Shown: positions 7,245 to 32,371 of the stretch, piece after piece | How the letters are laid out: every line of letters starts with the position of its first letter | How positions within the stretch are numbered: the first letter of the stretch is position 1 | Translations under genes and position numbers: made by a program | Origin: Maribacter sp. 1_MG-2023 | GTDB lineage: Bacteria; Bacteroidota; Bacteroidia; Flavobacteriales; Flavobacteriaceae | Reading direction: 5' to 3' | NCBI RefSeq assembly: GCF_030547005.1 | Contig: NZ_JAUOPN010000011.1 | Location: 1-64,000, forward strand | Length of the DNA stretch: 64,000 bases | The notes under the pieces: model-generated | Seen by the model: the letters and a program-made list of their open reading frames with translations, nothing else | Told to the model about the DNA's origin: nothing | The model's database searches: none

Positions 7245-8767
7245 CTAGTTAGGATTTTGTTGCAGTTTAGCCAAAACTTGATCTAAATTAAAACTACCCG
7301 GTTTTTGTCTAGGTGGAAATTCTTCGTATGTTTCAAGGTGTTTTGAAACATAACCTACTGCAGGTAAAACCATGAAAGCTCTATCAAACCTCCAAATATT
7401 ATACGTCTCCGCTTCATGATCGGCTCTTTCAAAAGGGTCTCCAAGCATATCTAATAATTTCGGCAATCTAAGGGTTACCATAGGTTCTGACCAAACATCG
7501 AAACCATGGGCACGTTGTTCCATAAATACCATTTTCCAACGACCGTAGCGTAAATTTGCTAATTGCCCATCATCTGTCCAATAAAAGAACTCTTTTCTTG
7601 GCGCTTCTTTAACATCACCTTTAAAATATGGTAATAAGTTGTAACCATCTAAATGTACCTTAAAGTTTCGTCCATTTGCAGAATGCCCTTTAAGAAGTTT
7701 TTCTTTTACATTGCCTTCACCAGCAGCTGCTAATATAGTTGGCAACATATCTTCATGTGAAAAAACATCATTATAAACAGTTCCTGGCGCTATAACACCA
7801 GGCCATTTTATAACTGTAGGTACACGGTAACCACCTTCCCAGTTAGAGTTTTTTTCATTTCTAAAAGGTGTCATACCACCATCAGGCCATGTGAAAACCT
7901 CAGCACCATTATCTGATGAATACATGATTATTGTATTGTCTGCAATACCTAGCTCATCTAGTTTGTCTAATATTTGACCAACATGTCTATCATGTTCTAC
8001 CATACCATCGGCATAAATACCAAGCCCGGTTACACCATCTGATTCTGGTTTAAGATGCGTATTTACATGCATTCTTGTAGTATTGTACCATAAGAAGAAA
8101 GGTTTGTCTTCACTTTTAGATCTTTCCATAAAGTCAATTGCACCAGCAGTAACTTCGTCATCTATTGTTTCCATACGTTTTTTGGTTAATGGACCCGTAT
8201 CTTCAGTCTTTCCATCAGCAGAAGATTTAATAACACCTCTTGGTCCAAAATTTTCTGCAAAACCTGGAACTTTAGGATAGTCTGGATGTTCTGGTTCTTC
8301 TTCTGCATTTAAATGATATAGATTTCCAAAGAATTCATCAAAACCATGGTTGGTAGGTAAGTGCTCATCTAAATCACCTAAATGATTTTACCATATTGTG
8401 CGGTTTTATAGCCGTGATTTTTTAATAATTCGGCTACAGTAGGATCTTTTTCACTTATACCCTCTTTAGCACCTGGTAAGCCAACCTTTAATAAGCCTGT
8501 TCTAAAAGGGCTTTGACCTGTAACAAATGCCGATCGGCCCGCAGTACAACTTTGTTGACCGTACCAATCAGTAAAAAGTGCTCCTTCTTTTGCAATATGA
8601 TCTATATTAGGGGTTTTATAGCCCATCATACCATTATTATAGCAGCTGGGGTTAAATCAACCGATATCATCGCCCCATATTACCACAATATTGGGTTTCT
8701 TTTGACTATAGACCCCTATGGTCATAGAAAAAACAAGACAAGTTGTAAAAAAATGCTTCATTTTCAT
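7245..8767 (-). pseudogene. Arylsulfatase gene broken by a nonsense codon and a frameshift
   Basis: Read from the ATG at 8767, the gene encodes a signal peptide (MKMKHFFTTCLVFSMTIGVYS) and the first metal-binding strand KPNIVVIWGDDIG, then a TGA at 8659-8657 where sulfatases usually have Trp. The same frame continues through GMMGYKTPNIDHIAKEG and the formylglycine motif CTAGR (SCTAGRSAFVTGQ), then stops after AQYGKII. Adding one A within the run at 8386-8389 restores GKNHLGDLDEHLPTNHGF, the conserved sulfatase GKWHLG-like site. From there the frame is open without defect to 7245 (309 codons are open from the ATG at 8174), with the metal-site strand MYSSDNGAEVF and WPGVIAPG. Repaired length is about 507 residues, normal for the family. 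All else is intact, so the damage is recent, or is sequence error at two places. Confidence 0.85.
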
Positions 8768-20072: not shown

Positions 20073-20933
20073 ATGCAAACAATTAAAGAACTGATAGAGT
20101 TGATAACTCTTAAAAGAATAGATGAAACCATATTTGAAGGGGAAAACTACAATGCCCCTTGGGGTAGGGTTTTTGGCGGGCAAGTATTAGCACAATCTTT
20201 ACATGCAGCCTATCAAACGGTGCCAGAAGATCGTATTGCACATTCGCTACATGGTTATTTTATTTTGGGCGGAGATTTAAAGTATCCGATTCGCTACGAG
20301 GTCGATACCATTAGAAATGGAGGCAGCTTTACTACAAGAAGGGTAGTGGCAAAACAAAACGGAAAAGCAATTTTCAATATGGCCGCATCATTTCAGGTAA
20401 AGTCCGATGGAGTTAACCATCAATTTCCGATGCCTAATTTAATTCCGCCAGAGAAACTAACTACCAGTCTCGAGCAGTTAGAAGAGATTAAGTATCTGTA
20501 CCCTGGTGCATATAAAAGATTAAAAGCGGTCCAGCCTAAAGTATTTGAATTTAAACCAGTAGAAAAATTTACAACGCAACTAATCGAAAATGGTTCTCCA
20601 TTTTTTAATACTTGGTTACGCACTTCTGATAAAGCTGAAATCGCTTTGCCGATGCAACAACAATTATTGGCTTACGCATCTGATTATAATTTACTGACCA
20701 CGGCGACATTACCACACAGAGAAGTATTGAATAAAGGCGAGACTTTTTATGCCAGCTTAGATCATGCTATATGGTTTCATCGCGATTTTGATATCCAAAA
20801 ATGGTTGTTATATAGTATGGATAGTCCAAGTGCTTCTAACTCTCGAGGATTTTCAAGAGGTAGTGTATATGACAGAACTGGAGTGTTGGTTGCTTCTGTA
20901 GCGCAAGAAGGGTTAATGCGTCCAAGTATATAA
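20073..20933 (+). CDS. tesB: Acyl-CoA thioesterase II (286 aa)
   Basis: Cytoplasmic thioesterase that hydrolyses medium- and long-chain acyl-CoAs. It has the double hot-dog fold of TesB. The first hot-dog domain contains APWGRVFGGQVLAQSLHAAYQTVP (about 27-50) and HSLHGYFILGGD. The second holds the catalytic triad: Asp in ASLDHAIWFHRDF (about 229-240), the Ser/Thr position in SMDSPSASNSRG (about 249-260) and Gln in SVAQEGLMR (about 275-283). Length and order match E. coli TesB (286 residues). It precedes the fatty-acyl catabolism cluster and may release excess CoA thioesters. No regulatory site is evident. Confidence 0.93.
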   Translation: MQTIKELIELITLKRIDETIFEGENYNAPWGRVFGGQVLAQSLHAAYQTVPEDRIAHSLHGYFILGGDLKYPIRYEVDTIRNGGSFTTRRVVAKQNGKAIFNMAASFQVKSDGVNHQFPMPNLIPPEKLTTSLEQLEEIKYLYPGAYKRLKAVQPKVFEFKPVEKFTTQLIENGSPFFNTWLRTSDKAEIALPMQQQLLAYASDYNLLTTATLPHREVLNKGETFYASLDHAIWFHRDFDIQKWLLYSMDSPSASNSRGFSRGSVYDRTGVLVASVAQEGLMRPSI

Positions 20934-21190: not shown

Positions 21191-21787
21191 GTGACTTCTC
21201 TGCAAAATCTTAAGAATAAAATTCTCTCTTACAATAAAGTAGATGACGATGTTTTAGATTATTGGTTGTCACTGTATGAAAGAATTGAATTGAAGAAAGG
21301 CGAAGCACTGATTTCTTCAGGTCAAATGGTTAACTATTTTTATTATTTAGATGCTGGTTGTATCTATTATTATAAAGTTCAAGATGGGGAGACCAAAGTT
21401 TTGGAGTTTTATACCGAAGATATTTTCTTTACCGATCTACCAGCCTATGTAAAAGGTTCGCCTTCAAGATATTTTTTAACGGCAACTGAAGAATCCACAG
21501 TCTTTGCAATAAAAAAATCGAATGCAGAAATGTCTTTTGATAATTCGCATCAATTAGAAAGATTTGGCAGATTGTCAATGCAAGAAGCTTTTTTAAAATC
21601 ATACAGTCGTGTAGAACGTATGAACAGTCGTACAAATGAAGAGCGTTATTTGAGGTTATTGGAGAAAAGGCCCGATTTATTTCAGCGTCTACCACAGTAT
21701 TTAATAGCATCATATTTAGGTTTGACACCTGTCGGGCTCTCTAAAATTCGAAAGCGTGTGGGTCAAAGAGAAAGCGATTGTGTTTAA
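21191..21787 (+). CDS. Crp/Fnr-family transcriptional regulator (198 aa)
   Basis: Regulator with an N-terminal cyclic-nucleotide-binding-like jelly roll (residues about 1-120; LKKGEALISSGQMVNYFYYLDAGCIYYYKV) and a C-terminal HTH (ERYLRLLEKRPDLFQRLPQYLIASYLGLTPVGLSKIRKRV). The recognition helix pattern AxYLGLTPVGLSKIRK is typical of flavobacterial Crp-like proteins. It starts at GTG 21191; no better ATG is in frame nearby. No Cys cluster for an iron-sulfur centre is present. The stop codon overlaps that of the convergent SBF transporter gene by the bases TTAA. Its target is unknown. Confidence 0.85.
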   Translation: MTSLQNLKNKILSYNKVDDDVLDYWLSLYERIELKKGEALISSGQMVNYFYYLDAGCIYYYKVQDGETKVLEFYTEDIFFTDLPAYVKGSPSRYFLTATEESTVFAIKKSNAEMSFDNSHQLERFGRLSMQEAFLKSYSRVERMNSRTNEERYLRLLEKRPDLFQRLPQYLIASYLGLTPVGLSKIRKRVGQRESDCV

Positions 21788-22650
21788 ATAATTTGTTTTT
21801 TAATCTGTTTATTGCTCCAGTAAATAAAAATACCTGCAGTAAAAAACATTAGAGTTCCATAAATAGCTGGTGCTATGGCATAAGCGGTATTGTTAAGTAG
21901 AATCGTTGCAATACTTATACCCAATGTTCCATTTTGTATTCCACCTTCTATAGCTACAGAAATACGTTGTTTAAGGGGTAGGCTGAAAATATATCCTAAG
22001 ATATATCCAATAGACATGGTAATAACATTAAGAGTTAAAGTTACAAGACCGGCTTCTTGAATATTGTTTATTAGCAGCGCCCGTTCTTTAATAAGAATTG
22101 CCACCAAAACAATGACAAAGAATATACCCGATGCTTTTTTTACTGGTTTTTCCATTTTCAAAGCAAAGCTTGGGCTTTTATATTTTAGTATCATCCCTAA
22201 GCCAACAGGTAAAATTACGATGATGAATACTTGTAAAATGGTTTGGGCTATATTGAGTTGAATAGTTGTGCCTTCACCCAAAACTTCTTGCAAACCTAAA
22301 TTGATAATAAAAGGAATCGATACCAAGGTTATTAAGCTACTTATTGCGGTTAGTGAAACTGAAAGTGCAGTATCGACATTTGCTAAATGTGTAATTAAGT
22401 TTGAAGTTGGTCCGCCAGGGCAGGCAGAAATAATGATGACGCCAATCGCAATTTCTGGCGATAAGTTGAAGATTCGTATGAGGATGAAGCCAACTATGAG
22501 AAGATTGATTAATTGACAGCATAGACCAATTAATATGGCTTTAGGTTTACTGAATATTCGAACGAAATCTTTGATCTCTAAAGATAAACCCATGCCGAAC
22601 ATGATGATGATTAGGGAAATAGCAAGAATTGCGTTAGAAATATTATCCAT
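21784..22650 (-). CDS. Bile acid:sodium symporter (SBF) family transporter (288 aa)
   Basis: Inner-membrane carrier of the SBF/BASS family with about nine or ten membrane spans. Signatures include IIIMFGMGLSLEIKDFVRIF near the N-terminus and the highly conserved ACPGGPTSNLITHLANVDTALSVSLTAISSL (about 80-110), which carries the sodium-binding crossover. Later, VAIEGGIQNGTLGISIATILL holds the second conserved E-x-GIQN site. Substrates of bacterial members include organic acids and sulfonates, so a bile-acid role should not be assumed. It converges with the Crp-type regulator, overlapping at the stop codons, and is divergent from the acyl-CoA dehydrogenase gene. Confidence 0.9.
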   Translation of the reverse strand: MDNISNAILAISLIIIMFGMGLSLEIKDFVRIFSKPKAILIGLCCQLINLLIVGFILIRIFNLSPEIAIGVIIISACPGGPTSNLITHLANVDTALSVSLTAISSLITLVSIPFIINLGLQEVLGEGTTIQLNIAQTILQVFIIVILPVGLGMILKYKSPSFALKMEKPVKKASGIFFVIVLVAILIKERALLINNIQEAGLVTLTLNVITMSIGYILGYIFSLPLKQRISVAIEGGIQNGTLGISIATILLNNTAYAIAPAIYGTLMFFTAGIFIYWSNKQIKKQII

Positions 22651-22790: not shown

Positions 22791-24605
22791 ATGGCAAATC
22801 AATATGTAGACTTAGAAACGCTCAAATTCTTATTATATAAAGTAAATAATCTGCAAGATGTTCTTGACCAAGAGCGCTATGCAGAATATGATCAAGAATC
22901 GGTAGAAATGATGCTGAATTCGGTTAAAGATTTTTCTGACAAAGAGCTTTACCCTTATTTCAGGGAGATGGATGAGAAGCCAGCACATTTTAAAGATGGT
23001 GAGATTGTAGTGCATCCTCAGGTGTTAAAATTTATGAAAGCTGGTGGAGAAATGGGGCTGATTGCAAGTTCATTTTCATATGAGCATGGTGGTATGCAAA
23101 TGCCTGCCATGGCGGCACATGCTTCGGCATTTATACAAGATGCAGCTAACAATCATTTACAAGGTTATATTGGTTTAACGGTGGGTTCTGCAGAATTGAT
23201 TGCCCATTTTGGTAGTCAAGAGCTTAAAGATATTTACTTGTCTAATATGCTTTCTGGAAAATGGGGCGGTACTATGTGTTTAACTGAACCACAGGCAGGT
23301 AGTTCACTTTCAGATATTACAACATCTGCTACGCCCGATGGCGATACCTATAAAATTAACGGACAGAAAATATTTATATCAGGTGGTGATTACCAAGGTG
23401 CAGAGAATATTGTGCATTTGGTTTTGGCAAGAATAAAAGGTGCACCAGCGGGCACAAAAGGAATATCTTTATTTGTGGTGCCTAAAAATAAACCAACTGC
23501 CAATGGTGGTTTAACACCTAATGATGTAACCGTAGTTGCCGATTTTGAAAAAATGGGACAACGTGGCTATTGTACAACGCACTTATTTTTTGGTGATAAA
23601 GAAAATTGTGAAGGTTGGCTTGTAGGTGAGGCTAATCAAGGGTTAAAATATATGTTTTTAATGATGAATGGCGCGAGAATCGGGGTTGGTAGAGGTGCAG
23701 CGGCGATAGCTTCGGCAGCATACCAAGCTTCTTTGAACTATGCGAACGAAAGACCACAAGGGCGTAAATTAACAAGCACAGGTAAAAAAGATGCAAACCA
23801 AGAGCAGACCTTAATTATTAACCATGCAGATGTTCGTAGAATGTTATTGTTGCAAAAAGTAATTACCGAAGGTGCTCAAAGTTTAGTACTGTTGACTGCA
23901 AAATATCATGACCTTTCTATAGCAAGTGCAACAGTAGAAGAACGCGAAAAATATAGATTGCTATTAGAGATTATGACACCTTTAGTAAAAACATATCCGT
24001 CTGAAGCGGGTATTGTTTCGGTAAATAATGGTGTTCAGGTTTTAGGTGGATATGGGTTTTGTTCCGAATATATATTACAACAATATTTAAGAGATATCCG
24101 TATTTCAGCTATCTATGAAGGTACAACGGGTATTCAATCTCAAGATTTATTAGGTAGAAAAGTAACGATGGATAACGGGAAGGCTTTACAGCTATTATCC
24201 GAAGAAATCACAAACACCATAAAAGCGAGTATGGTTCACGATTCTTTAAAACCATATGCAAATAAATTAGGAGGTAAATTAGAATTGACACAACAGGTAT
24301 TACAAAGCTTAATGGGCTTTGCCATGAAGGGCGATTACCAGCGTTTCTTAGCAGATGCTACTCCGTTTATGGAATTCTTTAGTACAATAGTACAAAGTTG
24401 GTTATGGCTAAATATAGGTCTTGAAGCTCAAAATGCCTTAGTAATGGGTAATAATGATCACAGTACAGAATTCTATGAAAGTAAAATTCATGCCATGGAA
24501 TTCTATTTCAAATACGAACTTCCAAAAACTTCGGGACTAGCAGAAATACTTATGGATAATGAGAAAGCTTTAACCATCGGTACAGATAAAGAAGTCTTTA
24601 TTTAA
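22791..24605 (+). CDS. Acyl-CoA dehydrogenase with C-terminal extension (604 aa)
   Basis: FAD-dependent dehydrogenase for the first step of beta-oxidation. Length and N-terminal pattern match the DUF-extended bacterial ACADs (about 600 residues). Visible signatures: MCLTEPQAGSSLSDI (about 160-175, the first family signature), KIFISGGDYQG, and the second signature ending in QVLGGYGFCSEYILQQYLRDIRISAIYEGTTGIQ with the catalytic base Glu443 in YEGT. The C-terminal 130 residues (about 470-604) form the extra helical domain. A strong hairpin terminator lies 91 bases after the stop, so it is transcribed separately from the cluster at 24.9-32.4 kb. The substrate range is likely long-chain acyl-CoA. 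Confidence 0.92.
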   Translation: MANQYVDLETLKFLLYKVNNLQDVLDQERYAEYDQESVEMMLNSVKDFSDKELYPYFREMDEKPAHFKDGEIVVHPQVLKFMKAGGEMGLIASSFSYEHGGMQMPAMAAHASAFIQDAANNHLQGYIGLTVGSAELIAHFGSQELKDIYLSNMLSGKWGGTMCLTEPQAGSSLSDITTSATPDGDTYKINGQKIFISGGDYQGAENIVHLVLARIKGAPAGTKGISLFVVPKNKPTANGGLTPNDVTVVADFEKMGQRGYCTTHLFFGDKENCEGWLVGEANQGLKYMFLMMNGARIGVGRGAAAIASAAYQASLNYANERPQGRKLTSTGKKDANQEQTLIINHADVRRMLLLQKVITEGAQSLVLLTAKYHDLSIASATVEEREKYRLLLEIMTPLVKTYPSEAGIVSVNNGVQVLGGYGFCSEYILQQYLRDIRISAIYEGTTGIQSQDLLGRKVTMDNGKALQLLSEEITNTIKASMVHDSLKPYANKLGGKLELTQQVLQSLMGFAMKGDYQRFLADATPFMEFFSTIVQSWLWLNIGLEAQNALVMGNNDHSTEFYESKIHAMEFYFKYELPKTSGLAEILMDNEKALTIGTDKEVFI

Positions 24606-24695
24606 TAAGAAAGAATAGTACTATTTGTTACCTTGAAAAGAGATTGATACAGATGTTTTAAACTTTTTAAGGCATTAATTAAAATAGGTAGAATT

Positions 24696-24728
24696 TCCTC
24701 CTTTCAATTGAAGGGAGGAGTTTTCTAA
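24696..24728 (+). terminator. Intrinsic terminator after the 604-residue acyl-CoA dehydrogenase
   Basis: Left arm 24696-24707 (TCCTCCTTTCAA) pairs with right arm 24708-24719 (TTGAAGGGAGGA), with one G-T wobble and a palindromic centre, followed by GTTTTCT. It separates the first dehydrogenase from the catabolic cluster. Confidence 0.7.
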
Positions 24729-24863
24729 CTTAGGGTGAAAACACGAGAATAGGAATGTTTCGTTCACAAGAAAAAGTTTAAAATAAATTCACATTTAGAA
24801 TATAACGCAGGTTTTGTCATTTCTTGATATAAAAACTAGCACAGAAAAACGAGATATAAACAT

Positions 24864-25640
24864 ATGAATAGCATAAAACAAAAATTTGATCTTACAGGAA
24901 AAGTGGCAATCGTTACAGGTTCTAGTAAAGGAATAGGCTTATCTATTGCGCGTGGTTTAGCGGAGAACGGAGCCAAGTTGGTTATCAGTAGTCGAAATCA
25001 AGAAGCTGTTGATGCTGTTGCAGCTGAATTTAATGAAGCTGGTTTTGATGCTATTGGTATTGCCTGTCATATTGGTGATGCAGAACAGAGAGAAGCACTG
25101 CTAGCAAAGACGGTTGAAAAATATGGACGAATAGATATATTGGTAAATAATGCAGCGATCAATCCTTTTTATGGTCCCATAGAAAGTGCTGAAGAAGAGG
25201 TTTTTGATAAAATAATGAATGTTAACGTAAAAGCACCTTGGTTACTCTCAAACCTGGTGCAACCATTTATGAAAGAGAATGGCAGCGGTAGTATTATTAA
25301 TATTTCGTCTGTAGAGGGTATTCATCCAGGGTTTAGATTAGGATTGTATAGTATGACCAAATCTGCCTTAATTATGCTTACAAAAAATCAGGCTAAAGAG
25401 TGGGGTAGATACGGTATTCGTTCTAATGTAGTTTGTCCCGGACTCATTAAAACAAAGTTCAGTCAAAGTCTTTGGTCCAATGATAAATTAGTTGAAGGTT
25501 ACAATCAGACCGTGCCATTAAAAAGAATGGCAGAACCAGATGAAATGGCAGGCATCGTAATGCTCTTGGCATCAGATGCAGGTTCGTATATGACCGGTGG
25601 TGTTTACGCAGCAGACGGTGGATATTTAATTTCAGGATAA
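24864..25640 (+). CDS. Short-chain dehydrogenase/reductase (258 aa)
   Basis: NAD(P)-dependent oxidoreductase with a classical SDR fold. The cofactor loop is TGSSKGIG (residues 18-25), the stabilising motif is NNAAINPF (about 95), and the active site is S-x12-YSMTKSALIML, giving the usual Ser-Tyr-Lys arrangement (Tyr about 161, Lys about 165). The fold finishes with VVCPGLIKTKFS and the glycine-rich tail DGGYLISG. It is the first gene of the plus-strand cluster that continues to 32371, with a 120-base gap to the next gene. Substrate probably a hydroxyacyl-CoA or ketoacyl-CoA; LvaD, an SDR, has the comparable place in the levulinate pathway of Pseudomonas. Confidence 0.9.
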   Translation: MNSIKQKFDLTGKVAIVTGSSKGIGLSIARGLAENGAKLVISSRNQEAVDAVAAEFNEAGFDAIGIACHIGDAEQREALLAKTVEKYGRIDILVNNAAINPFYGPIESAEEEVFDKIMNVNVKAPWLLSNLVQPFMKENGSGSIINISSVEGIHPGFRLGLYSMTKSALIMLTKNQAKEWGRYGIRSNVVCPGLIKTKFSQSLWSNDKLVEGYNQTVPLKRMAEPDEMAGIVMLLASDAGSYMTGGVYAADGGYLISG

Positions 25641-25760
25641 AAATCTGTATTCGATTTTGGTTAAGAGTTATGCTATCCTAAGGGGGTAAAGCTTATCAAC
25701 TAAAATTCAAATCCAAATCCAAAAATACATTCTAAACACTATCAACGAAAACGAGAAAAA

Positions 25761-26975
25761 ATGAATTTTGAATATTCAGAAAAATCCAAAGAACTTCAAG
25801 AAAAGCTAAAGCAGTTTGTATCTCAAAATTTGGCTCCTGTTGAAAAAGAAGTAGAGGCTTTTCATAAAGACCCGGCAAATGCATGGACAAAGTGGCCAGG
25901 TTTAGAAGGATTAAAACAAAAAGCAAAAAATGCAGGTTTATGGAATCTTTTCCTTCCAAAAACATATGGTGATTTAAGTCCGGGTTTGACCAATATGGAA
26001 TATGCTCCATTGGCAGAGATTATGGGGCGCACGTTATGGTCATCAGAAGTATTCAATTGCAGCGCACCAGATACCGGTAATATGGAAGTATTATCAAAAT
26101 ATGGTACTCCAAAACAGCAAGAAAAATGGTTAAAACCATTGATGAATGGCGACATTCGTTCTGCATTTTTAATGACAGAACCTGACGTCGCTTCATCAGA
26201 TGCTACCAATATAGAAACATCTATCGTAGCCGATGGTGATGAATACGTAATTAATGGTCGTAAATGGTGGTCATCGGGTGCAATGGATCCTAATTGTAAG
26301 ATTGCCATTGTCATGGGAAAAACAGATTTTGATGCTCCCAGACATGTGCAACAAAGTATGATTTTGGTTCCTATGGACACACCGGGTCTAAAAGTGATTA
26401 GACCGTTAACAGTTTTTGGTTACAACGATTCTCCAGAGGGTCATGCAGAAATTCTTTTAGATAATGTTCGCGTACCCAAAGAAAACTTATTGGTTGGCGA
26501 AGGTCAGGGGTTTGCAATTGCTCAGGGTAGATTAGGTCCTGGTAGAATACATCACTGCATGCGATTGATAGGTATGGCGCAACGCTCGCTAGAAATTATG
26601 TCGCAACGTACAACGCAACGCAAACCTTTTGGAAGAACTTTAGATACCTACAGTAGTGTTCGTCAAGATATTGCAAATTCAGCTTGTGAGATAGAGCAAA
26701 CAAGACTTCTGGTACTCTCTGCAGCCGATAAAATGGATAAACTAGGCAACAAAGAAGCCAAAGATTTAATTGCCATGATTAAAATTGTAACGCCAAATAT
26801 GACACTGAGAGTAGTAGATAGGGCAATGCAAATTTTAGGTGGATTGGGTGTAAGCAGCGATGTACCATTGGCACATTTTTTTGCTGCTGCCAGAATGCTC
26901 AGATTAGCTGATGGACCAGATGAGGTTCATATGAGCCAATTGGGTAAGAATGTTATAAAGCAGTACTCGAAGTAA
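25761..26975 (+). CDS. Acyl-CoA dehydrogenase, ACAD10/ACAD11-like (404 aa)
   Basis: Flavoprotein of the acyl-CoA dehydrogenase fold. It carries hallmarks I associate with the ACAD10/11 branch: [18 protein letters not shown] (about 94-111), [15 protein letters not shown] (about 136-150) and the C-terminal [16 protein letters not shown]. At the place of the usual YEGT catalytic Glu it reads A-D-G-P, with Asp384 instead of Glu. In mammals and in Pseudomonas LvaC, these enzymes act with a kinase on 4-hydroxyacyl-CoAs, where the kinase phosphorylates the 4-hydroxyl and the ACAD domain eliminates the phosphate. The next gene here encodes just such a kinase. This inference rests on remembered family features, without an alignment. 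Confidence 0.88.
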
Positions 26976-27028
26976 CAACAGAATAAGAATAAACTAGCAC
27001 TAAGTATATGGTAAAGGGAGACTTAGAT

Positions 27029-27050
27029 GTCATTTCGAACTTGTCGAAAA
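27029..27050. repeat. Short REP-like inverted repeat in cluster intergenic gap
   Basis: The block TGTCATTTCGAAC-TTG-TCGAAAAC contains the inverted repeat TTTCGA (27033-27038) and TCGAAA (27044-27049). The GTCATTTCGA half resembles dispersed intergenic repeats common in flavobacterial genomes. It lies in the 153-base gap between the ACAD and kinase genes. Only one copy is visible in this window. Confidence 0.4.
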
Positions 27051-27128
27051 CTTAAGTATACAAAAAGTGTATTGGTTTAAGAATGATTGTAAACTAGAAA
27101 GAATAAAGAGCAACTGATAATAAAGAAG

Positions 27129-28196
27129 ATGAATTTAAAACCAGTCAGAGAAGGTGAAGAATTAAACGACGTCAAACTTAAGAAATTCTTGTTTGAGCAT
27201 AACCTTATTACAGACGCCAAAAGCGAGCTGCAGGTTGGTCAATTCTCCAATGGTTTTTCAAATCTAACATATCTATTACATATAGAAGATAAAGAATATG
27301 TATTACGTCGCCCTCCATTTGCCGCTCCGAAGAGAGGTCATGATATGGGAAGGGAATATAAAGTAATTCACAACTTGAATAAGGTATTCGATAAGGCACC
27401 AATGGCATTTGCCTATACAGAAGATGTCGATGTAATTGGTGCCCCATTTTATATAATGAGTAAGGTTTTAGGTGAAATTTTAACTGCAAAAGAAGCAAGA
27501 ACAAGACAGGTTTCTCCTTCAGAATTCAAAACAATTTCAAATACCTGGCTCGATACTTTCGTAGAATTTCATAATGTCGATTACAAGGCAGCAGGATTAG
27601 ATAATTTAGGCAGACCTGTAGGGTATGTTGAAAGACAAGTTACCAATTGGGGTAAACAATATTTAGCAGCCGCTACCGATGACGTGCCTACCGCTGAAAA
27701 GGTAATGGCATGGATGCAAGATAATCAGCCGAAAGAATACGATCATACTTTAATACATAACGATTTTAAGTATGACAATGTCGTTTTTAAAGATGATACG
27801 TGGAAAGAGATTACGGCTATTCTAGATTGGGAAATGTGCACGCTAGGTGATCCTTTAATGGATTTAGGTACTTCTTTAGGCTATTGGACCACTGCTGCCG
27901 ATCCCGATTTTATGAAGCAAGGTTTGCAATCGCCAACGGTAATGGAAGGCAACCCATCTAGAACAGAAATCGTTCAGCAATATGGACTGAAGAGTGGTAG
28001 AAATATAGATAACCTTACATTTTATTATACGTACGGACTTTTTAAAATAGCGGTTATCGCGCAGCAAATATATTACAGGTACAAGCACGGGCATACTAGT
28101 GACCCAAAATTTGCTAACTTGAATAAAGCTTCAGAATTATGTTGTAATACAGCGTGGCAAGCCATTCAGAAAAATCAAATTGATAATTTATTTTAA
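27129..28196 (+). CDS. APH-family phosphotransferase (ACAD10/11 or LvaA-like kinase, 355 aa)
   Basis: Kinase of the aminoglycoside phosphotransferase fold. It has the ATP-binding start QVGQFSNGFSNLTYLLHIEDKEYVLRRPP (about 35-66, with Lys-to-Arg placement as in this family), the catalytic loop LIHNDFKYDNVVF (His210, Asp212, Asn217) and the metal-binding DWE at 233-235 in AILDWEMCTLGDPLMDLG. That last phrase is very characteristic of ACAD10/ACAD11-type kinases. It directly follows the ACAD10/11-like dehydrogenase and precedes a small gene by four bases, as in the lva operon of Pseudomonas putida (LvaA kinase, LvaB small protein, LvaC dehydrogenase). Proposed role: phosphorylating a 4-hydroxyacyl-CoA. 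Substrate is inferred, not shown. Confidence 0.88.
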   Translation: MNLKPVREGEELNDVKLKKFLFEHNLITDAKSELQVGQFSNGFSNLTYLLHIEDKEYVLRRPPFAAPKRGHDMGREYKVIHNLNKVFDKAPMAFAYTEDVDVIGAPFYIMSKVLGEILTAKEARTRQVSPSEFKTISNTWLDTFVEFHNVDYKAAGLDNLGRPVGYVERQVTNWGKQYLAAATDDVPTAEKVMAWMQDNQPKEYDHTLIHNDFKYDNVVFKDDTWKEITAILDWEMCTLGDPLMDLGTSLGYWTTAADPDFMKQGLQSPTVMEGNPSRTEIVQQYGLKSGRNIDNLTFYYTYGLFKIAVIAQQIYYRYKHGHTSDPKFANLNKASELCCNTAWQAIQKNQIDNLF

Positions 28197-28200
28197 GGGT

Positions 28201-28584
28201 ATGAAAAAAGAAGCATTTCTAGAAATCAATGAAGAACAATTTAAGGCATTTGTAAAATTTCCCAAGGATACTTCTGTAGTGATGCTTAATTTATTGAAAT
28301 TTAAAGAATTGGTGACAGAAACAGGCTTGTCGGGAGCTGATTCTTATAAAGAATATATGAAAAAAGCGACTCCTTTTTTCATAAAAGCAGAAGCAGAAAT
28401 CTTATTTATGGGAAAAGAAACCACCATGTTAATAGGACCGGAAGACGAAGAATTATGGGATAAAATTTTACTCATAAAATATAAAACGATTTCAGATTTT
28501 TTAGAAATGATACAAGCCGAAGGTTATCCTTCTCATTTAAGAAATCAAGCATTGGAAGATTCTCGGTTAATTCATTGTAGCTGA
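28201..28584 (+). CDS. DUF1330/EthD-like small protein (127 aa)
   Basis: Small protein with a ferredoxin-like (dimeric alpha-beta barrel) fold suggested by VVMLNLLKFKELV, YKEYMKKATPFFIKAEAEILFMGKETTMLIG and ILLIKYKTISDFLEMIQAEGYPS, matching the DUF1330 pattern. The start is ATG 28201; an earlier in-frame TTG at 28180 overlaps the kinase gene and is unlikely. It begins four bases after the kinase stop, so the two are translationally coupled. In the lva operon a small protein (LvaB) is needed with the kinase LvaA. Position here is similar but homology has not been shown. Confidence 0.75.
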   Translation: MKKEAFLEINEEQFKAFVKFPKDTSVVMLNLLKFKELVTETGLSGADSYKEYMKKATPFFIKAEAEILFMGKETTMLIGPEDEELWDKILLIKYKTISDFLEMIQAEGYPSHLRNQALEDSRLIHCS

Positions 28585-28702
28585 ATAGCAGGAATATAAA
28601 TTGAAAAAATAACCAGGCAGTAGTTAGATAGTTAATCAATCTTTTTTGCCAAAACCAACACAGTCAAGAATCTGGTAACACTAAAAGTTTAAAAAGGAAC
28701 AA

Positions 28703-29458
28703 ATGAATTTAAAAGACAAAATTGTAATTATAACAGGTGCAGGTAGTGGTATTGGCGCAGCAACGGCAAAACTTTTTGGAACACATGGTGCAAACGTTAT
28801 TGTTTCTGATATTAACGTAGAGAACGCGAATAAGGTAGTTGAAGAAATAAAAAGCGCAGGTGGCACGGCATCGGCAGTTAAAACCGATGTAACCAAGTTT
28901 GAAGAAGTTGAAAGCTTAATAACAGGCACAGTTTCAAAATACGGTAGTCTTGATGTCATGGTAAATAATGCGGGTATTGGTGGAAAGCACCAAGCAAAAA
29001 CTGCAGATCATACGCATGATGATTGGCATAATGTAATAGCCGTGAACCAAACTGGCGTATTTTATTGTATGCAGGCGGCCATAAAGCAAATGCTCTCTCA
29101 AGGAAAAGGGAATATAGTAAACGTAGCATCGCTTGCAGGTTTGAAAGCATCAGGAAATAACTTGTCGTATAGCGCAAGCAAATTTGCAGTGGTAGGTATG
29201 ACAAAGTCCGCCGCCTTAGAATATGGCAGAAAAAATATCCGTGTCAATGCCGTTTGTCCTGGATTTACACACTCAGCACTATTAGAACAATTATTGTCCG
29301 TAAGTCCTGATATGGGCTCTAAACTTAAACGCTTTATACCAATGGGGCGCTTTGGTGAAGCAGATGAAATTGCAGAGGCAATCTGCTGGTTGGCTTCTGA
29401 TAATTCTAAATTTATTACAGGTCAGACCATAACATTAGACGGTGGAACTTCATTATAA
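28703..29458 (+). CDS. Short-chain dehydrogenase/reductase (251 aa)
   Basis: NAD(P)-dependent SDR. Cofactor loop TGAGSGIG (residues 11-18), stabilising NNAGIGGKH (about 90), active-site YSASKFAVVGMTKSA (Tyr about 155, Lys about 159) and the C-terminal TGQTITLDGGTSL. It lies within the catabolic cluster, 118 bases after the small gene and six bases before the enoyl-CoA isomerase-like gene, with which it is surely co-transcribed. Likely a 3-hydroxyacyl-CoA or alcohol dehydrogenase, on the evidence of its neighbours. Stereochemistry and chain length cannot be read from the sequence. Confidence 0.9.
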   Translation: MNLKDKIVIITGAGSGIGAATAKLFGTHGANVIVSDINVENANKVVEEIKSAGGTASAVKTDVTKFEEVESLITGTVSKYGSLDVMVNNAGIGGKHQAKTADHTHDDWHNVIAVNQTGVFYCMQAAIKQMLSQGKGNIVNVASLAGLKASGNNLSYSASKFAVVGMTKSAALEYGRKNIRVNAVCPGFTHSALLEQLLSVSPDMGSKLKRFIPMGRFGEADEIAEAICWLASDNSKFITGQTITLDGGTSL

Positions 29459-29464
29459 GCAAAT

Positions 29465-30235
29465 ATGAAAACATTAGAAATAACATATAAAGGTGATTAT
29501 GCTATAGTTCAAATGAACCGTGGTAAGGTAAACGCGATTAATGCCGAAATGGTAAATGAATTATCGACTACGTTTCGTGACTTAGAAAAAAATATAGCGG
29601 TAAAGGGGGTAATTCTAACAGGTCAGCCCCATTACTTTTCTGCAGGTTTAGATTTAATTGAATTGTATCAATATGAACAAGAACAAATCACTCATTTTTT
29701 CACAGTATTTGGTGCTTTATATCTTCAATTAGTCCAGTTTAAAAAACCATTCATCTCAGCAATTACCGGTCATTCTCCGGCAGGAGGTTGTGTATTGGCA
29801 GTGGCAAGTGATAATCGGTATATGGCAGAAGGAGACAAGTATGTTATAGGCTTAAATGAGGTAGCCGTTAACATTCAAATAAGTCAAAACCTAACAGAAG
29901 CATATGCATTTTGGATGGGCGATGGTTTGGCAAGTAGATATATTCTAGAAGGAAAATTACTATCTGGAAAAGAAGCATTGGCAGCCGGACTGGTAGATGA
30001 GTTAGTGCCTTTAGAAAATGTATTGGAACGTGCTGAAAAGCAGATGAAAATATATATGAGGGCAGACCAAGAAATTCTTATGAATACAAAGGCAAAACTT
30101 AGAAAGCACCTTTTAGATAAACTAGACTTAAATGCCGAAACTTCATTGAAAGAAGCATCAGAGCTTTGGTGGAAACCAGAAATTCGAGCCAAAATGAAAG
30201 CTTACGTCGAAAGTTTTTCGAGCAAGAAGAAGTAA
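29465..30235 (+). CDS. Enoyl-CoA hydratase/isomerase family protein, ECI-like (256 aa)
   Basis: Crotonase-fold enzyme. The first oxyanion-hole segment is GQPHYFSAGLDLIELYQ (about 51-67) and the second is ISAITGHSPAGGCVLAVASDNRYM (about 97-121). The HSPAGG turn resembles that of delta3,delta2-enoyl-CoA isomerases (ECI) more than classical hydratases, and the two catalytic glutamates of hydratases are not clear. An isomerase acting on unsaturated acyl-CoAs would fit a cluster for lipids that need extra processing before beta-oxidation. It starts six bases after the SDR. Confidence 0.85.
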   Translation: MKTLEITYKGDYAIVQMNRGKVNAINAEMVNELSTTFRDLEKNIAVKGVILTGQPHYFSAGLDLIELYQYEQEQITHFFTVFGALYLQLVQFKKPFISAITGHSPAGGCVLAVASDNRYMAEGDKYVIGLNEVAVNIQISQNLTEAYAFWMGDGLASRYILEGKLLSGKEALAAGLVDELVPLENVLERAEKQMKIYMRADQEILMNTKAKLRKHLLDKLDLNAETSLKEASELWWKPEIRAKMKAYVESFSSKKK

Positions 30236-30315
30236 AGTAAGGGGTTCGAAATTAAAATTATAAGGTTCAAATTAAACAGATTTCCTTTAGCAGGAATTTA
30301 AAAGATAAAAGAAAC

Positions 30316-31314
30316 ATGAATAAACAATTATTATTTGTAAAAAGACCACAAGGTGAAGCAGATGCTTCTACATGGTCGCTAGTAACGACTCCAACACCTG
30401 AAATAGAGGAAGGTCAATTTTTGGTAAAACAACATTATGTATCACTAGATCCTGCTATGCGCGGGTGGATGAATGATGCAAGATCATATATAGCACCAAT
30501 GGAAATTGGTTCGGTCATGAGAGCGGGTTCTGTTGGCGAGGTAGTAGCCTCTAAAAACCCAAAATTTAAAGTAGGACAATATGTTGCTGGTACCGGTGGA
30601 GTTCAACAATATGCCGTAACTGACGGAACAGGATTTTATCCTGTAGATCCAAAATTAGCTCCGTTACCCACTTATATAGGTTCTTTAGGTATGCCAGGAA
30701 TGACAGCTTTTTTCGGAATTCAAGAAGTAGGGAAGATTAAAGCAGGCGATATCGTTGTGGTTTCAGGTGCTGCAGGAGCTGTTGGGAGTATCGTTGGTCA
30801 AATTGCCAAAATAAAAGGTTGCCATGTGGTAGGTATAGCCGGTGGCGCAGATAAATGTAAATATGTAGTTGACGAACTTGGTTTTGACGCTTGTATCGAC
30901 TACAAAAATGAGGATATCAAAGCACGTTTGAAAGAAGAATGCCCAAAGGGATTAGATGTTTATTTTGATAATGTAGGTGGTGAAATTTTAGATGCCGTTC
31001 TAGGCAGATTAAGACTTCATGCAAGAATTGTTATTTGTGGTGCCATTTCTCAGTATAACAATAAAGAGGCGGTAAAAGGCCCAAGTAATTATCTATCACT
31101 TTTGGTCAATAGAGCCAGCATGACAGGTATCGTTGTTTTTGATTGGGCAGATAGATATAAAGAAGGAGCTGAACAATTAGGCATATGGATGGCACAAGGA
31201 AAAATAAAGAGCCGTGAAGATATTTACGAAGGAATTGAAAATTTTCCACAGACCTACAACCGACTTTTCTCAGGAGATAAAATGGGGAAATTGGTTTTGA
31301 AGGTGATAGAATAA
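30316..31314 (+). CDS. MDR-family NADP-dependent alkenal/enone reductase-like protein (332 aa)
   Basis: Zinc-free medium-chain reductase similar to prostaglandin reductase, leukotriene B4 dehydrogenase and curcumin reductase CurA. Characteristic features are YVSLDPAMRGWMNDARSY (about 40-58), the nucleotide-binding VSGAAGAVGSIVGQIAKIKGCHVVGIAGG (about 150-178) and DVYFDNVGGEILDAVL (about 213-230). Enzymes of this group reduce the alpha,beta double bond of enones and alkenals, including 4-hydroxynonenal. Located in the putative 4-hydroxyacyl cluster, it could feed lipid peroxidation products into the pathway. This is a functional guess; substrate cannot be read from the sequence. Confidence 0.87.
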   Translation: MNKQLLFVKRPQGEADASTWSLVTTPTPEIEEGQFLVKQHYVSLDPAMRGWMNDARSYIAPMEIGSVMRAGSVGEVVASKNPKFKVGQYVAGTGGVQQYAVTDGTGFYPVDPKLAPLPTYIGSLGMPGMTAFFGIQEVGKIKAGDIVVVSGAAGAVGSIVGQIAKIKGCHVVGIAGGADKCKYVVDELGFDACIDYKNEDIKARLKEECPKGLDVYFDNVGGEILDAVLGRLRLHARIVICGAISQYNNKEAVKGPSNYLSLLVNRASMTGIVVFDWADRYKEGAEQLGIWMAQGKIKSREDIYEGIENFPQTYNRLFSGDKMGKLVLKVIE

Positions 31315-31393
31315 ATATAACTAACCGCAGAATGCCAAACGCATCACTTCTCAAGCAGAATATGCGATGAGCGATGAGCACAAAGCTAAAAAA

Positions 31394-32371
31394 ATGAAAG
31401 CAATACGATGTAATAAATACGGTCCTCCATCTTCTTTGGTATTGGAAGAAGTTGATAATTTAAAACCAAAGGCGAAGGAGGTTTTAGTAGCGGTAAAAGC
31501 ATGCGGACTTAATTTCCCTGATACACTTATAATACAAGGGTTGTATCAATTTAAACCAGAATTACCTTTTACACCAGGTAGTGATGTAGCAGGAGTTGTG
31601 AAGGAAGTAGGCGAAGGTATAACTCATTTGAAAGTGGGTCAAGAAGTATTTGGTTTTGTAGCTCACGGCGGTTTGGCAGAAGAAGTTATCGTACCTGCAA
31701 ATGCCTGTTTTCCAAAACCACCACAAATGGATTTTCCGACAGCAGCGTCATTTTTAATGGCGTACGGTACTTCTTACCATGCATTAAAAGATAGAGGTGT
31801 ATTGGTAGAAGAGGAAACTCTTTTAGTACTGGGGGCATCTGGTGGCGTAGGGTTGGCAGCTGTTGAGTTAGGTAAGTTAATGGGAGCAAAAGTTATTGCA
31901 GCAGCTTCAACAGATGAAAAACTATCCTTATGCCAAGAATATGGAGCTGACGCAACTATAAACTACACCACACAAGATTTAAAAGAATCAATTAAAGTTC
32001 TGACAGAAGGTAAAGGTGTAGATGTCATATATGATCCGGTAGGTGGTGCATATTCAGAAGCGGCATTTCGTGGTATGGCCAGAAACGGTAGGTATTTGGT
32101 GGTTGGATTTGCCGCTGGTGATATTCCGAAAATACCATTGAACCTTCCTTTATTAAAAGAGGCTTCTATTGTTGGTGTTTTTTGGGGAGCTTTTGCAATG
32201 AAAGATTCTAAAGCAAATATGGAAAATACAATGACTTTAATGAAATGGCATGCCCAGGGAAAATTGAAACCACATATTCACGCCATTTACAATTTGGAAG
32301 ATACATCAAAAGCATTGGAAGAAATGACGAATAGAAAAGTGATGGGTAAGTTGATTGTAAAGATTGAGTAG
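31394..32371 (+). CDS. NADPH:quinone reductase family MDR protein (325 aa)
   Basis: Zinc-free medium-chain dehydrogenase/reductase of the quinone oxidoreductase group. N-terminal GroES-like domain MKAIRCNKYGPPSSLVLEEVDN to about 120, including NFPDTLIIQGLYQFKPELPFTPGSDVAGVV. The Rossmann domain has LVLGASGGVGLAAVELGKLMGAKVIAAAS (about 140-168) and DVIYDPVGGAYSEAAFRG. I choose ATG 31394, the family start; an in-frame ATG at 31367 adds nine residues. It closes the plus-strand cluster and is followed by hairpins and heptamer repeats. Role in quinone or enone reduction is likely. Confidence 0.85.
   Translation: MKAIRCNKYGPPSSLVLEEVDNLKPKAKEVLVAVKACGLNFPDTLIIQGLYQFKPELPFTPGSDVAGVVKEVGEGITHLKVGQEVFGFVAHGGLAEEVIVPANACFPKPPQMDFPTAASFLMAYGTSYHALKDRGVLVEEETLLVLGASGGVGLAAVELGKLMGAKVIAAASTDEKLSLCQEYGADATINYTTQDLKESIKVLTEGKGVDVIYDPVGGAYSEAAFRGMARNGRYLVVGFAAGDIPKIPLNLPLLKEASIVGVFWGAFAMKDSKANMENTMTLMKWHAQGKLKPHIHAIYNLEDTSKALEEMTNRKVMGKLIVKIE

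What the first reader, a model, noticed from the sequence alone, without database searches (positions are those of the whole stretch)
24864..32371. Possible kinase-dependent 4-hydroxyacyl-CoA catabolic cluster
The ACAD10/11-like dehydrogenase (25761-26975) is followed by an APH-type kinase (27129-28196) with HNDFKYDN and DWE, then a small protein. In mammals ACAD10/11 and in Pseudomonas putida LvaA/LvaC, such a pair phosphorylates and then removes the 4-hydroxyl group of 4-hydroxyacyl-CoAs. Here they are separate genes, with two SDRs, an ECI-like protein and an MDR reductase of the type that acts on 4-hydroxynonenal. I infer a pathway for degrading 4-hydroxy acids, perhaps from oxidised lipids or levulinate. 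No acyl-CoA ligase is in the cluster.
Basis: partly seen in the sequence, partly recalled or inferred. Interest (0 to 1): 0.62.

Follow-up and report, generated by a model that had tools for sequence, protein, structure and literature searches.

The report
Bacterial kinase pathway for 4-hydroxy acids
A flavobacterium carries, as separate genes, the same kinds of kinase and unusual dehydrogenase that mammals use to burn 4-hydroxy fatty acids, inside a conserved gene cassette that may salvage oxidised lipids; the core chemistry is known, the cassette around it looks new.

Summary
The dehydrogenase (25761-26975) is an ACAD10/11/LvaC-class enzyme: its best solved relative is ACAD11, and it keeps the Asp base, HCMR motif, extra Arg and Pro that mark the class. 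The kinase (27129-28196) keeps the catalytic residues but branches apart from mammalian ACAD11. Both genes occur in exactly the same 17 of 149 family genomes, within 1.6 kb of each other in all 17. All 20 lone-kinase genomes that I searched hold such a dehydrogenase elsewhere.

The cluster is larger than stated. In relatives it is a cassette: long-type acyl-CoA dehydrogenase, DHRS4-like SDR, ACAD11-type, kinase, often a small protein, SDR, isomerase, enone-type and quinone-type reductases, then in some SDR, MaoC hydratase and acyl-CoA ligase. This genome has those last three on another contig.

The core chemistry is known. The cassette, and a small dimeric-barrel protein set directly after the kinase, are the new parts. 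The substrate (4-hydroxy/4-oxo fatty acids, perhaps oxylipins) is inferred only.

The parts
21191..21787 (+). cNMP-binding (Crp-like) regulator; like the gene directly upstream of the cassette in several relatives
   Evidence: Pfam PF00027; 52-67% identical gene upstream of the 604-aa ACAD in L022, L027, L028, L030, L077
21784..22650 (-). SBF/BASS-type transporter, between regulator and cassette here and in L077; loosely associated
   Evidence: Pfam PF01758 134.8 bits; 70% identical gene at the same place in L077
22791..24605 (+). 604-aa acyl-CoA dehydrogenase with canonical Glu base, probably the ordinary beta-oxidation ACAD of the cassette
   Evidence: Pfam, best PDB 8pns, 313 bits; Glu at the base position
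24864..25640 (+). SDR1, DHRS4-like; candidate 4-oxoacyl/4-hydroxyacyl-CoA reductase (role of LvaD), inferred
   Evidence: best PDB DHRS4 2zat, 229 bits; within 3.5 kb of the kinase in 14 of 16 family loci at 37% identity or more
25761..26975 (+). ACAD10/11/LvaC-class dehydrogenase; predicted to turn 4-phospho-acyl-CoA into 2-enoyl-CoA
   Evidence: best PDB ACAD11 2wbi, 453 bits; P103, R257, R262, H265-C-M-R268, D384
27129..28196 (+). APH-type kinase; predicted 4-hydroxyacyl-CoA kinase
   Evidence: Pfam APH; PDB 9o56 300 bits, ACAD11 157 bits; D212, N217, R169 match mouse D220, N225, R176
28201..28584 (+). small dimeric alpha-beta barrel protein (RPA0582-like, near DUF1330), 4 bases after the kinase
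   Evidence: PDB 3dca/3hhl E about 1e-19 to 1e-18; model pLDDT 90, 3dca Z 17.2, rmsd 1.9, 123 aligned; same place in 5 other family genomes
28703..29458 (+). SDR2, FabG-like
   Evidence: conserved at this place in relatives
29465..30235 (+). crotonase closest to mitochondrial 3,2-trans-enoyl-CoA isomerase
   Evidence: PDB 1xx4, 122 bits
30316..31314 (+). PTGR/alkenal-enone reductase type MDR
   Evidence: PDB 4b7c 471 bits, prostaglandin reductase 2 229 bits; NF058644 394.8 bits, below its cut-off of 440
31367..32371 (+). quinone-oxidoreductase-type MDR (PIG3-like)
   Evidence: TIGR02824 249 bits, below its cut-off of 296.8; conserved at this place in relatives

Best explanation
This is a catabolic cassette for 4-hydroxy (and 4-oxo) acyl-CoAs. 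Proposed steps: an acyl-CoA ligase encoded elsewhere in the genome activates the acid; the PTGR-type reductase removes a 2,3 double bond next to a 4-oxo group where present; SDR1 interconverts 4-oxo and 4-hydroxy; the APH kinase puts a phosphate on the 4-hydroxyl of the CoA ester; the ACAD10/11-class flavoenzyme expels the phosphate and leaves 2-enoyl-CoA without an outside electron acceptor; MaoC, SDR3/SDR2, the isomerase and the 604-aa ACAD then run ordinary beta-oxidation. Shown here: family membership, active-site residues, strict co-occurrence of kinase and dehydrogenase in the genomes sampled, a conserved cassette. Taken from published work on ACAD10/11 and LvaA/LvaC: the two core reactions. 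Inferred: the substrate, the roles of SDR1, PTGR and the quinone-type reductase, and that the distant ligase belongs to the pathway. The confidence given is for the core pair acting on 4-hydroxyacyl-CoAs; for fatty-acid-length or oxidised-lipid substrates I would say about 0.45.
For: ACAD: best PDB matches are ACAD11 at 453, 442 and 440 bits and 4hr3 at 428, against 142 bits for the next ACAD. All class-marking residues are present in the window enzyme and in 34 (window included) of the 35 proteins that labels ACAD11 or ACAD393 (the 35th is a 25%-identical ACAD in L036 without them), while the 604-aa ACADs at 57% identity or more, window's included, have Glu (12 of 12). Kinase and ACAD are in the same 17 of 149 family genomes and at most 1.6 kb apart in all 17 (window and 16 of 16 relatives). 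20 of 20 lone-kinase genomes searched have such an ACAD elsewhere. Cassette order is conserved and in some relatives ends with SDR, MaoC and AMP-binding ligase; an SDR, MaoC and ligase of this kind lie together in this genome on contig C2. Core reactions are reported for mammalian ACAD10/11 and for bacterial kinase and ACAD orthologues (PMC12440821, PMC11342911, passages).
Against: The kinase is only 34% identical to the mouse ACAD11 kinase and branches apart from it; LvaA itself could not be compared. The DUF6285 family, which I recall (unverified) as that of LvaB, is absent from the genome. Of the 80 named kinase loci only 34 have such an ACAD within 5 kb, and of the 46 others only 14 genomes were searched further. 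The kinase is sporadic: 17 of 149 family genomes, 27 of 395 phylum genomes, and neither gene is in the one congener sampled. L132 and L135 have the 604-aa ACAD and SDR1 with the pair but no PTGR or SDR2 above threshold. Nothing tests the substrate.
Confidence: 0.83

Rival explanations
1. The pair does the known chemistry, but the natural substrate is a short acid such as levulinate or 4-hydroxyvalerate, as in Pseudomonas putida, and the other genes are incidental beta-oxidation genes.
For: Kinase, ACAD and SDR together as in the lva operon (PMC6692424 passages); most of the 121 other loci have the kinase without PTGR and the 604-aa ACAD.
Against: In the family the long-type ACAD (nearest 8pns), SDR2, PTGR and second MDR travel with the pair in 8 of 16 loci plus the window, the isomerase in 5 of those 8 plus the window; a C5 acid would hardly need them (inference).
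Confidence: 0.15
2. The cassette mainly detoxifies reactive enones, enals and quinones (lipid peroxidation products), and the kinase/ACAD pair only clears the end products.
For: Two MDR reductases, one nearest to alkenal/enone reductases.
Against: SDR3, MaoC and ligase in relatives, with ACAD604 and isomerase, look like a chain-shortening set, which points to carbon use.
Confidence: 0.2
3. The kinase acts on another hydroxyacyl-CoA position or on a ring substrate (for example steroid or terpenoid side chains), with the ACAD adapted to it.
For: SBF/BASS-type transporter beside the cassette here and in L077; kinase branch differs from the mammalian one.
Against: All residues that are modelled to hold the 4-phospho group in ACAD11 are kept (PMC12440821 passage); in cells, ACAD10-dependent phospho-product was seen with 4-hydroxy- but not 5- or 6-hydroxyhexanoate (PMC11342911, passage). 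The transporter is not generally linked (2 of 121 other loci at the thresholds, and a weaker one, L045).
Confidence: 0.08

Closest known systems
Mammalian ACAD10/ACAD11
   Same: Same dehydrogenase class with Asp base, HCMR motif, extra Arg and Pro; an APH-type kinase for the preceding step
   Different: Two separate genes here, not one fused chain; kinase about 34% identical and in another branch; set among SDR, isomerase and reductase genes
Pseudomonas putida lva operon (LvaA, LvaB, LvaC, LvaD, LvaE)
   Same: Separate kinase and ACAD genes with an SDR and, in the same genome, ligases
   Different: No DUF6285 gene in the genome (that LvaB is DUF6285 is recalled); a dimeric-barrel protein follows the kinase instead; added PTGR, second MDR, isomerase, long-type ACAD. 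LvaA and LvaC letters were not available, so no direct alignment
Pseudomonas citronellolis levulinate cluster
   Same: Kinase, ACAD and SDR clustered; no LvaB found there (PMC6692424, passages)
   Different: There a histidine phosphatase stands by the kinase, as in L029, L031, L032 and others here; the window genome gave no match to the L031 phosphatase

Membership tests
ACAD10/11-LvaC dehydrogenase class | Asp instead of Glu as catalytic base (D753 of mouse ACAD11) | tested here: met
   D384; [11 protein letters not shown] aligned to ACAD11
ACAD10/11-LvaC dehydrogenase class | HCMR motif with upstream Arg (R626, H634, R637) | tested here: met
   R257, H265-C266-M267-R268; features from PMC12440821
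ACAD10/11-LvaC dehydrogenase class | Conserved Pro said to widen the active site (human ACAD11 Pro463) | tested here: met
   P103; feature from PMC11342911, matched by the motif APDTGNM
ACAD10/11-LvaC dehydrogenase class | Closest solved relative is ACAD11, not an ordinary ACAD | tested here: met
   453 bits against 142 for the first match after ACAD11 and 4hr3
ACAD10/11-LvaC dehydrogenase class | Phosphate elimination from 4-phosphoacyl-CoA without electron acceptor | not testable with these tools
   needs enzyme assay
LvaA / ACAD10-11 4-hydroxyacyl-CoA kinase | Catalytic Asp, Asn and DWE, and CoA-contact Arg (D220, N225, R176 of mouse ACAD11) | tested here: met
   D212, N217, R169, D233-W234-E235. 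The Arg that the paper calls R86, next to the alpha-C Glu, was matched by context only: position 86 by my count is Phe in the mouse chain and Tyr in the window, while R75-E76 is invariant in 13 of 13 rows
LvaA / ACAD10-11 4-hydroxyacyl-CoA kinase | Same sequence clade as a proven kinase | tested here: inconclusive
   Mouse ACAD11 kinase, 3dxp and L049 group together; the window kinase is in another part of the tree (midpoint root); LvaA was not available
LvaA / ACAD10-11 4-hydroxyacyl-CoA kinase | Partner dehydrogenase of the HCMR/Asp class in the genome | tested here: met
   same 17 of 149 genomes; 20 of 20 lone-kinase genomes searched
lva operon | LvaB beside LvaA | tested here: inconclusive
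   No DUF6285 match in the genome, but that LvaB is DUF6285 is my recollection; LvaB letters were not available
lva operon | Acyl-CoA ligase (LvaE role) in the operon | tested here: not met
   None among the genes of 22791-32371; a ligase 71% identical to the cassette ligase of L022 lies on contig C2
RPA0582-like dimeric barrel (small protein) | Sequence profile and fold match to RPA0582 | tested here: met
   3dca E 9.7e-20; Z 17.2, rmsd 1.9, 123 aligned, rows other than RPA0582 at 10.8 or below

The most novel reading that the evidence does not exclude
The Flavobacteriaceae cassette is a bacterial counterpart of the mammalian route that salvages oxidised lipids: PTGR-type reductase, DHRS4-like carbonyl reductase, 4-hydroxyacyl-CoA kinase and ACAD11-class enzyme in one gene cluster, used on algal oxylipins or peroxidised fatty acids. 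The small RPA0582-like barrel protein, placed directly after the kinase, is a new kinase partner or substrate-handling protein (for example for the gamma-lactone form of 4-hydroxy acids, its fold being shared with muconolactone isomerases) that fills the slot held elsewhere by LvaB or a histidine phosphatase.
Probability: 0.3. Interest if true: 0.62.

Novelty: new variant of a known kind. Interest (0 to 1): 0.42.

Why it matters
The 4-phosphoacyl-CoA route was assigned to mammalian ACAD10/11 only in 2024-2025, and the bacterial enzymes characterised in the papers whose passages I saw are from Pseudomonas and Burkholderia. A conserved Bacteroidota cassette ties the kinase/dehydrogenase pair to an enone-type reductase, a DHRS4-like SDR and, in some relatives, a ligase, which gives testable candidates for the steps before the kinase. 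If 4-hydroxy or 4-oxo fatty acids from algae are the substrate, it would show how flavobacteria use oxidised lipids.

Tried and rejected
Considered and dropped: an aminoglycoside-resistance role for the APH gene (best solved matches after the functionally unassigned 9o56 are ACAD11 kinase domains, and the gene goes with the HCMR dehydrogenase). Steroid or bile-acid use suggested by the SBF transporter: apart from the window, it passed the thresholds in 2 of 121 loci (a third, weaker, in L045). LvaB in the genome by way of DUF6285: none, and the link LvaB = DUF6285 is recalled, not checked. Histidine phosphatase elsewhere in the genome: no match with the L031 protein (the tool notes that an empty answer shows little). 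Search for LvaA in 11 Pseudomonadaceae genomes: each gave one kinase of the window type and one gave a second weak match; none was identified as LvaA. Rand 2017 (PMC5705400) is not held and is known to me only through passages of other papers. Papers: ACAD11+Flavobacteri+phosphotransferase gave none; at least four of 4-hydroxy acid, Bacteroidetes, acyl-CoA dehydrogenase, phosphotransferase, levulin gave only the two ACAD10/11 papers; so 'not in print' is meant only for the searches in an open-licence library. RPA0582 is named in one held paper, on software (listing only). PADLOC on the small protein: no match. The simple ORF picker fails in GC-rich loci (L047, L049 and L093 among them), so counts over all loci come from tblastn. 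The HCMR filter also accepted HTMR, HSMR and HAMR: this lets in L092 (HHAMR), while L049 (RLSPARLSHCMR, no DG-type Asp motif found) has HCMR without the first His. Of 27 phylum genomes with the kinase, 20 surroundings were newly taken, two were already held and five were left. The kinase tree used 26 of the 80 named loci, chosen by hand for spread, and two of the three other APH matches of this genome; it is rooted at the midpoint only, and the long branches of 9fsg, L002, L003 and L096 are unsafe.
Full report
Observation. The window lies in a 4.27 Mb genome of 45 contigs as C3:1-64000. The kinase contains HNDFKYDN and DWE. The small protein starts at ATG 28201, 4 bases after the kinase stop. 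The gaps between the genes of 22791-32371 run from 4 to 258 bases, all on the + strand.

The dehydrogenase. Its best solved relatives are ACAD11 (2wbi 453 bits; 8v3u and 8v3v 442 and 440 bits, taken to be the mouse protein of PMC12440821) and 4hr3, a putative ACAD (428 bits); the next match scores 142 bits. PMC12440821 (abstract, section list and passages) names D753, R626, R631, H634 and R637 of mouse ACAD11 as the catalytic base and substrate contacts, with HCMR as the class motif. PMC11342911 (passages) adds Pro463 of human ACAD11 and proposes oxidation, phosphate elimination and re-reduction without an outside acceptor. The window enzyme has P103, R257, R262, H265-C266-M267-R268 and D384 at these places. 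So do, window included, 34 of the 35 proteins that labels ACAD11 or ACAD393; the 35th, in L036, is only 25% identical and lacks them. The 604-aa ACADs at 57% identity or more, window's included, have Glu (12 of 12).

The kinase. Its nearest solved chain is 9o56 (300 bits, named only 'Aminoglycoside phosphotransferase'), then ACAD11 (157 and 154 bits) and 3dxp (147 bits). Against the mouse kinase domain it is 34% identical (104 of 307), with D212, N217 and R169 at mouse D220, N225 and R176. In a tree of 74 kinases mouse ACAD11, 3dxp and the Sphingobium kinase L049 group together, while the window kinase sits in a well-supported flavobacterial group in another part. Two of the three other APH matches of this genome were included; they fall far outside on very long branches, and score 13 and below 0 bits against the window kinase where mouse ACAD11 scores 158. 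LvaA could not be included. So the kinase belongs to the broad class, but it is not shown to be in the clade of a proven kinase.

Co-occurrence. In 149 genomes of the family (148 genera), the kinase is found in 17 (E 1e-30) and the dehydrogenase in 17 (E 1e-60), and they are the same 17. In the 16 relatives and in the window (153 bases) the two are at most 1.6 kb apart on the same strand. In the phylum, 27 of 395 genomes have the kinase at E 1e-40; of 20 surroundings newly taken, 14 have an ACAD with the motif within 5 kb. In the best 80 of 595 named hits from one capped scan, 34 of 80 do; some of the other 46 are cut by contig ends. For all 6 phylum loci without one, and for 14 of the 46 named loci, of my choice (11 of them Pseudomonadaceae), the genomes were searched: 20 of 20 have a dehydrogenase of this class elsewhere. 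Of the 24 matches, 23 carry HHCMR and one HHAMR, and by eye all have an Asp at the base position. These genomes are related, so the counts are not independent trials.

The cassette. In relatives the pair lies in a conserved series: 604-aa ACAD, SDR1, ACAD11-type, kinase, small protein (not always), SDR2, isomerase (not always), PTGR-type reductase, quinone-type reductase, SDR3, MaoC, AMP-binding ligase (the last three not always). At the thresholds, PTGR, SDR1, SDR2 and the 604-aa ACAD are together in 8 of 16 family loci, 3 of 20 phylum loci and 3 of 80 named loci (one of them a duplicate of a family locus), besides the window; a fourth named locus (L128) has PTGR, but its record begins just upstream of the kinase. 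L132 and L135 have the 604-aa ACAD and SDR1 without PTGR or SDR2. The ligase is in place in 4 of 16 family loci, none of 20 phylum loci and 1 of 80 named loci. Other relatives have other settings: ACAD11-type, SDR, kinase and histidine phosphatase (L031, L032), or SDRs, MaoC, crotonase, a 393-aa HCMR-type ACAD, kinase and two further ACADs in five genomes of 1.3 to 2.0 Mb (L033-L037). In the window genome an SDR, a MaoC (76% identical to that of L022) and a ligase (71%) lie together at the end of contig C2, the SDR 145 bases from the contig end.

Neighbours and likely roles. SDR1 is nearest to DHRS4 (229 bits), the PTGR-type protein to 4b7c and, among named functions, to reductases such as prostaglandin reductase 2 (471 and 229 bits), the 604-aa ACAD to 8pns (313 bits) and the crotonase to mitochondrial 3,2-trans-enoyl-CoA isomerase (122 bits). 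These are family placements, not tests of function. That PTGR-type enzymes saturate 4-hydroxy- or 4-oxo-2-alkenals is general knowledge, recalled. From this I infer a route from 4-oxo- or 4-hydroxy-2-enoic acids through saturation, 4-oxo reduction, phosphorylation and elimination to 2-enoyl-CoA. The weakest step is the identity of the substrate.

The small protein. It has only a sub-threshold DUF1330 match (17.6 bits, cut-off 23). A four-row profile finds RPA0582 of Rhodopseudomonas palustris (3dca, E 9.7e-20); an AlphaFold model (pLDDT 90) matches 3dca with Z 17.2, rmsd 1.9 over 123 residues, while 4-methylmuconolactone methylisomerase and others of the dimeric-barrel fold score about 8 to 9. 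In the 149 family genomes strong members (157 bits or more) occur in 6, all among the 17 with the kinase and all directly beside it; 8 weaker relatives (59-83 bits) occur in genomes without the kinase. So 11 of the 17 do without it. In 121 other loci the small protein is near the kinase in 8 and a histidine phosphatase in 41, never both (the loci are related and include at least two duplicates). The guess that it serves the kinase, as LvaB is reported to bind LvaA (PMC6692424, passage), is open.

Known or new. The two reactions are known. What I did not find in the papers reached (searches; an open-licence library only, listings and passages) is this Bacteroidota cassette, its link with a PTGR-type reductase and a DHRS4-like SDR, or the small protein. 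PMC6692424 states, citing Rand 2017, that lvaABCD homologues occur in Alpha-, Beta- and Gammaproteobacteria (passage). I therefore call it a new variant of a known kind, of moderate interest.

Noticed in passing
window 21784-22650: An SBF/BASS-type transporter on the minus strand sits between the cNMP-type regulator and the cassette; the same arrangement is in L077 (70% identical), and an SBF relative (39%) lies near the kinase of Alteromonas L205.
   Followed up: partly
L029, L031, L032, L045, L047, L048 and 35 of the 80 named loci: A histidine phosphatase stands near this kinase type in 41 of 121 loci, also in the published Pseudomonas citronellolis cluster; its role beside a kinase that makes a phospho-CoA ester is unexplained.
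   Followed up: partly
L033-L037: Five small flavobacterial genomes have a different cassette: kinase, a 393-aa HCMR-type ACAD about 40% identical to the window's, two further ACADs, crotonase, MaoC and SDRs; a second subtype of the dehydrogenase, also common outside the family.
   Followed up: partly
L049 4787-5965: The Sphingobium plasmid ACAD beside an ACAD10/11-type kinase reads RLSPARLSHCMR, with the first His of HHCMR changed, and no DG-type Asp motif was found in its tblastn hit.
   Followed up: no
window 20073-20933: A TesB-like acyl-CoA thioesterase lies just upstream of the regulator; not labelled near the cassette in the relatives shown.
   Followed up: no
window 7245-8174: An ORF that by eye reads like the C-terminal part of a sulfatase without its start; possibly a fragment. 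Recalled resemblance, not searched.
   Followed up: no
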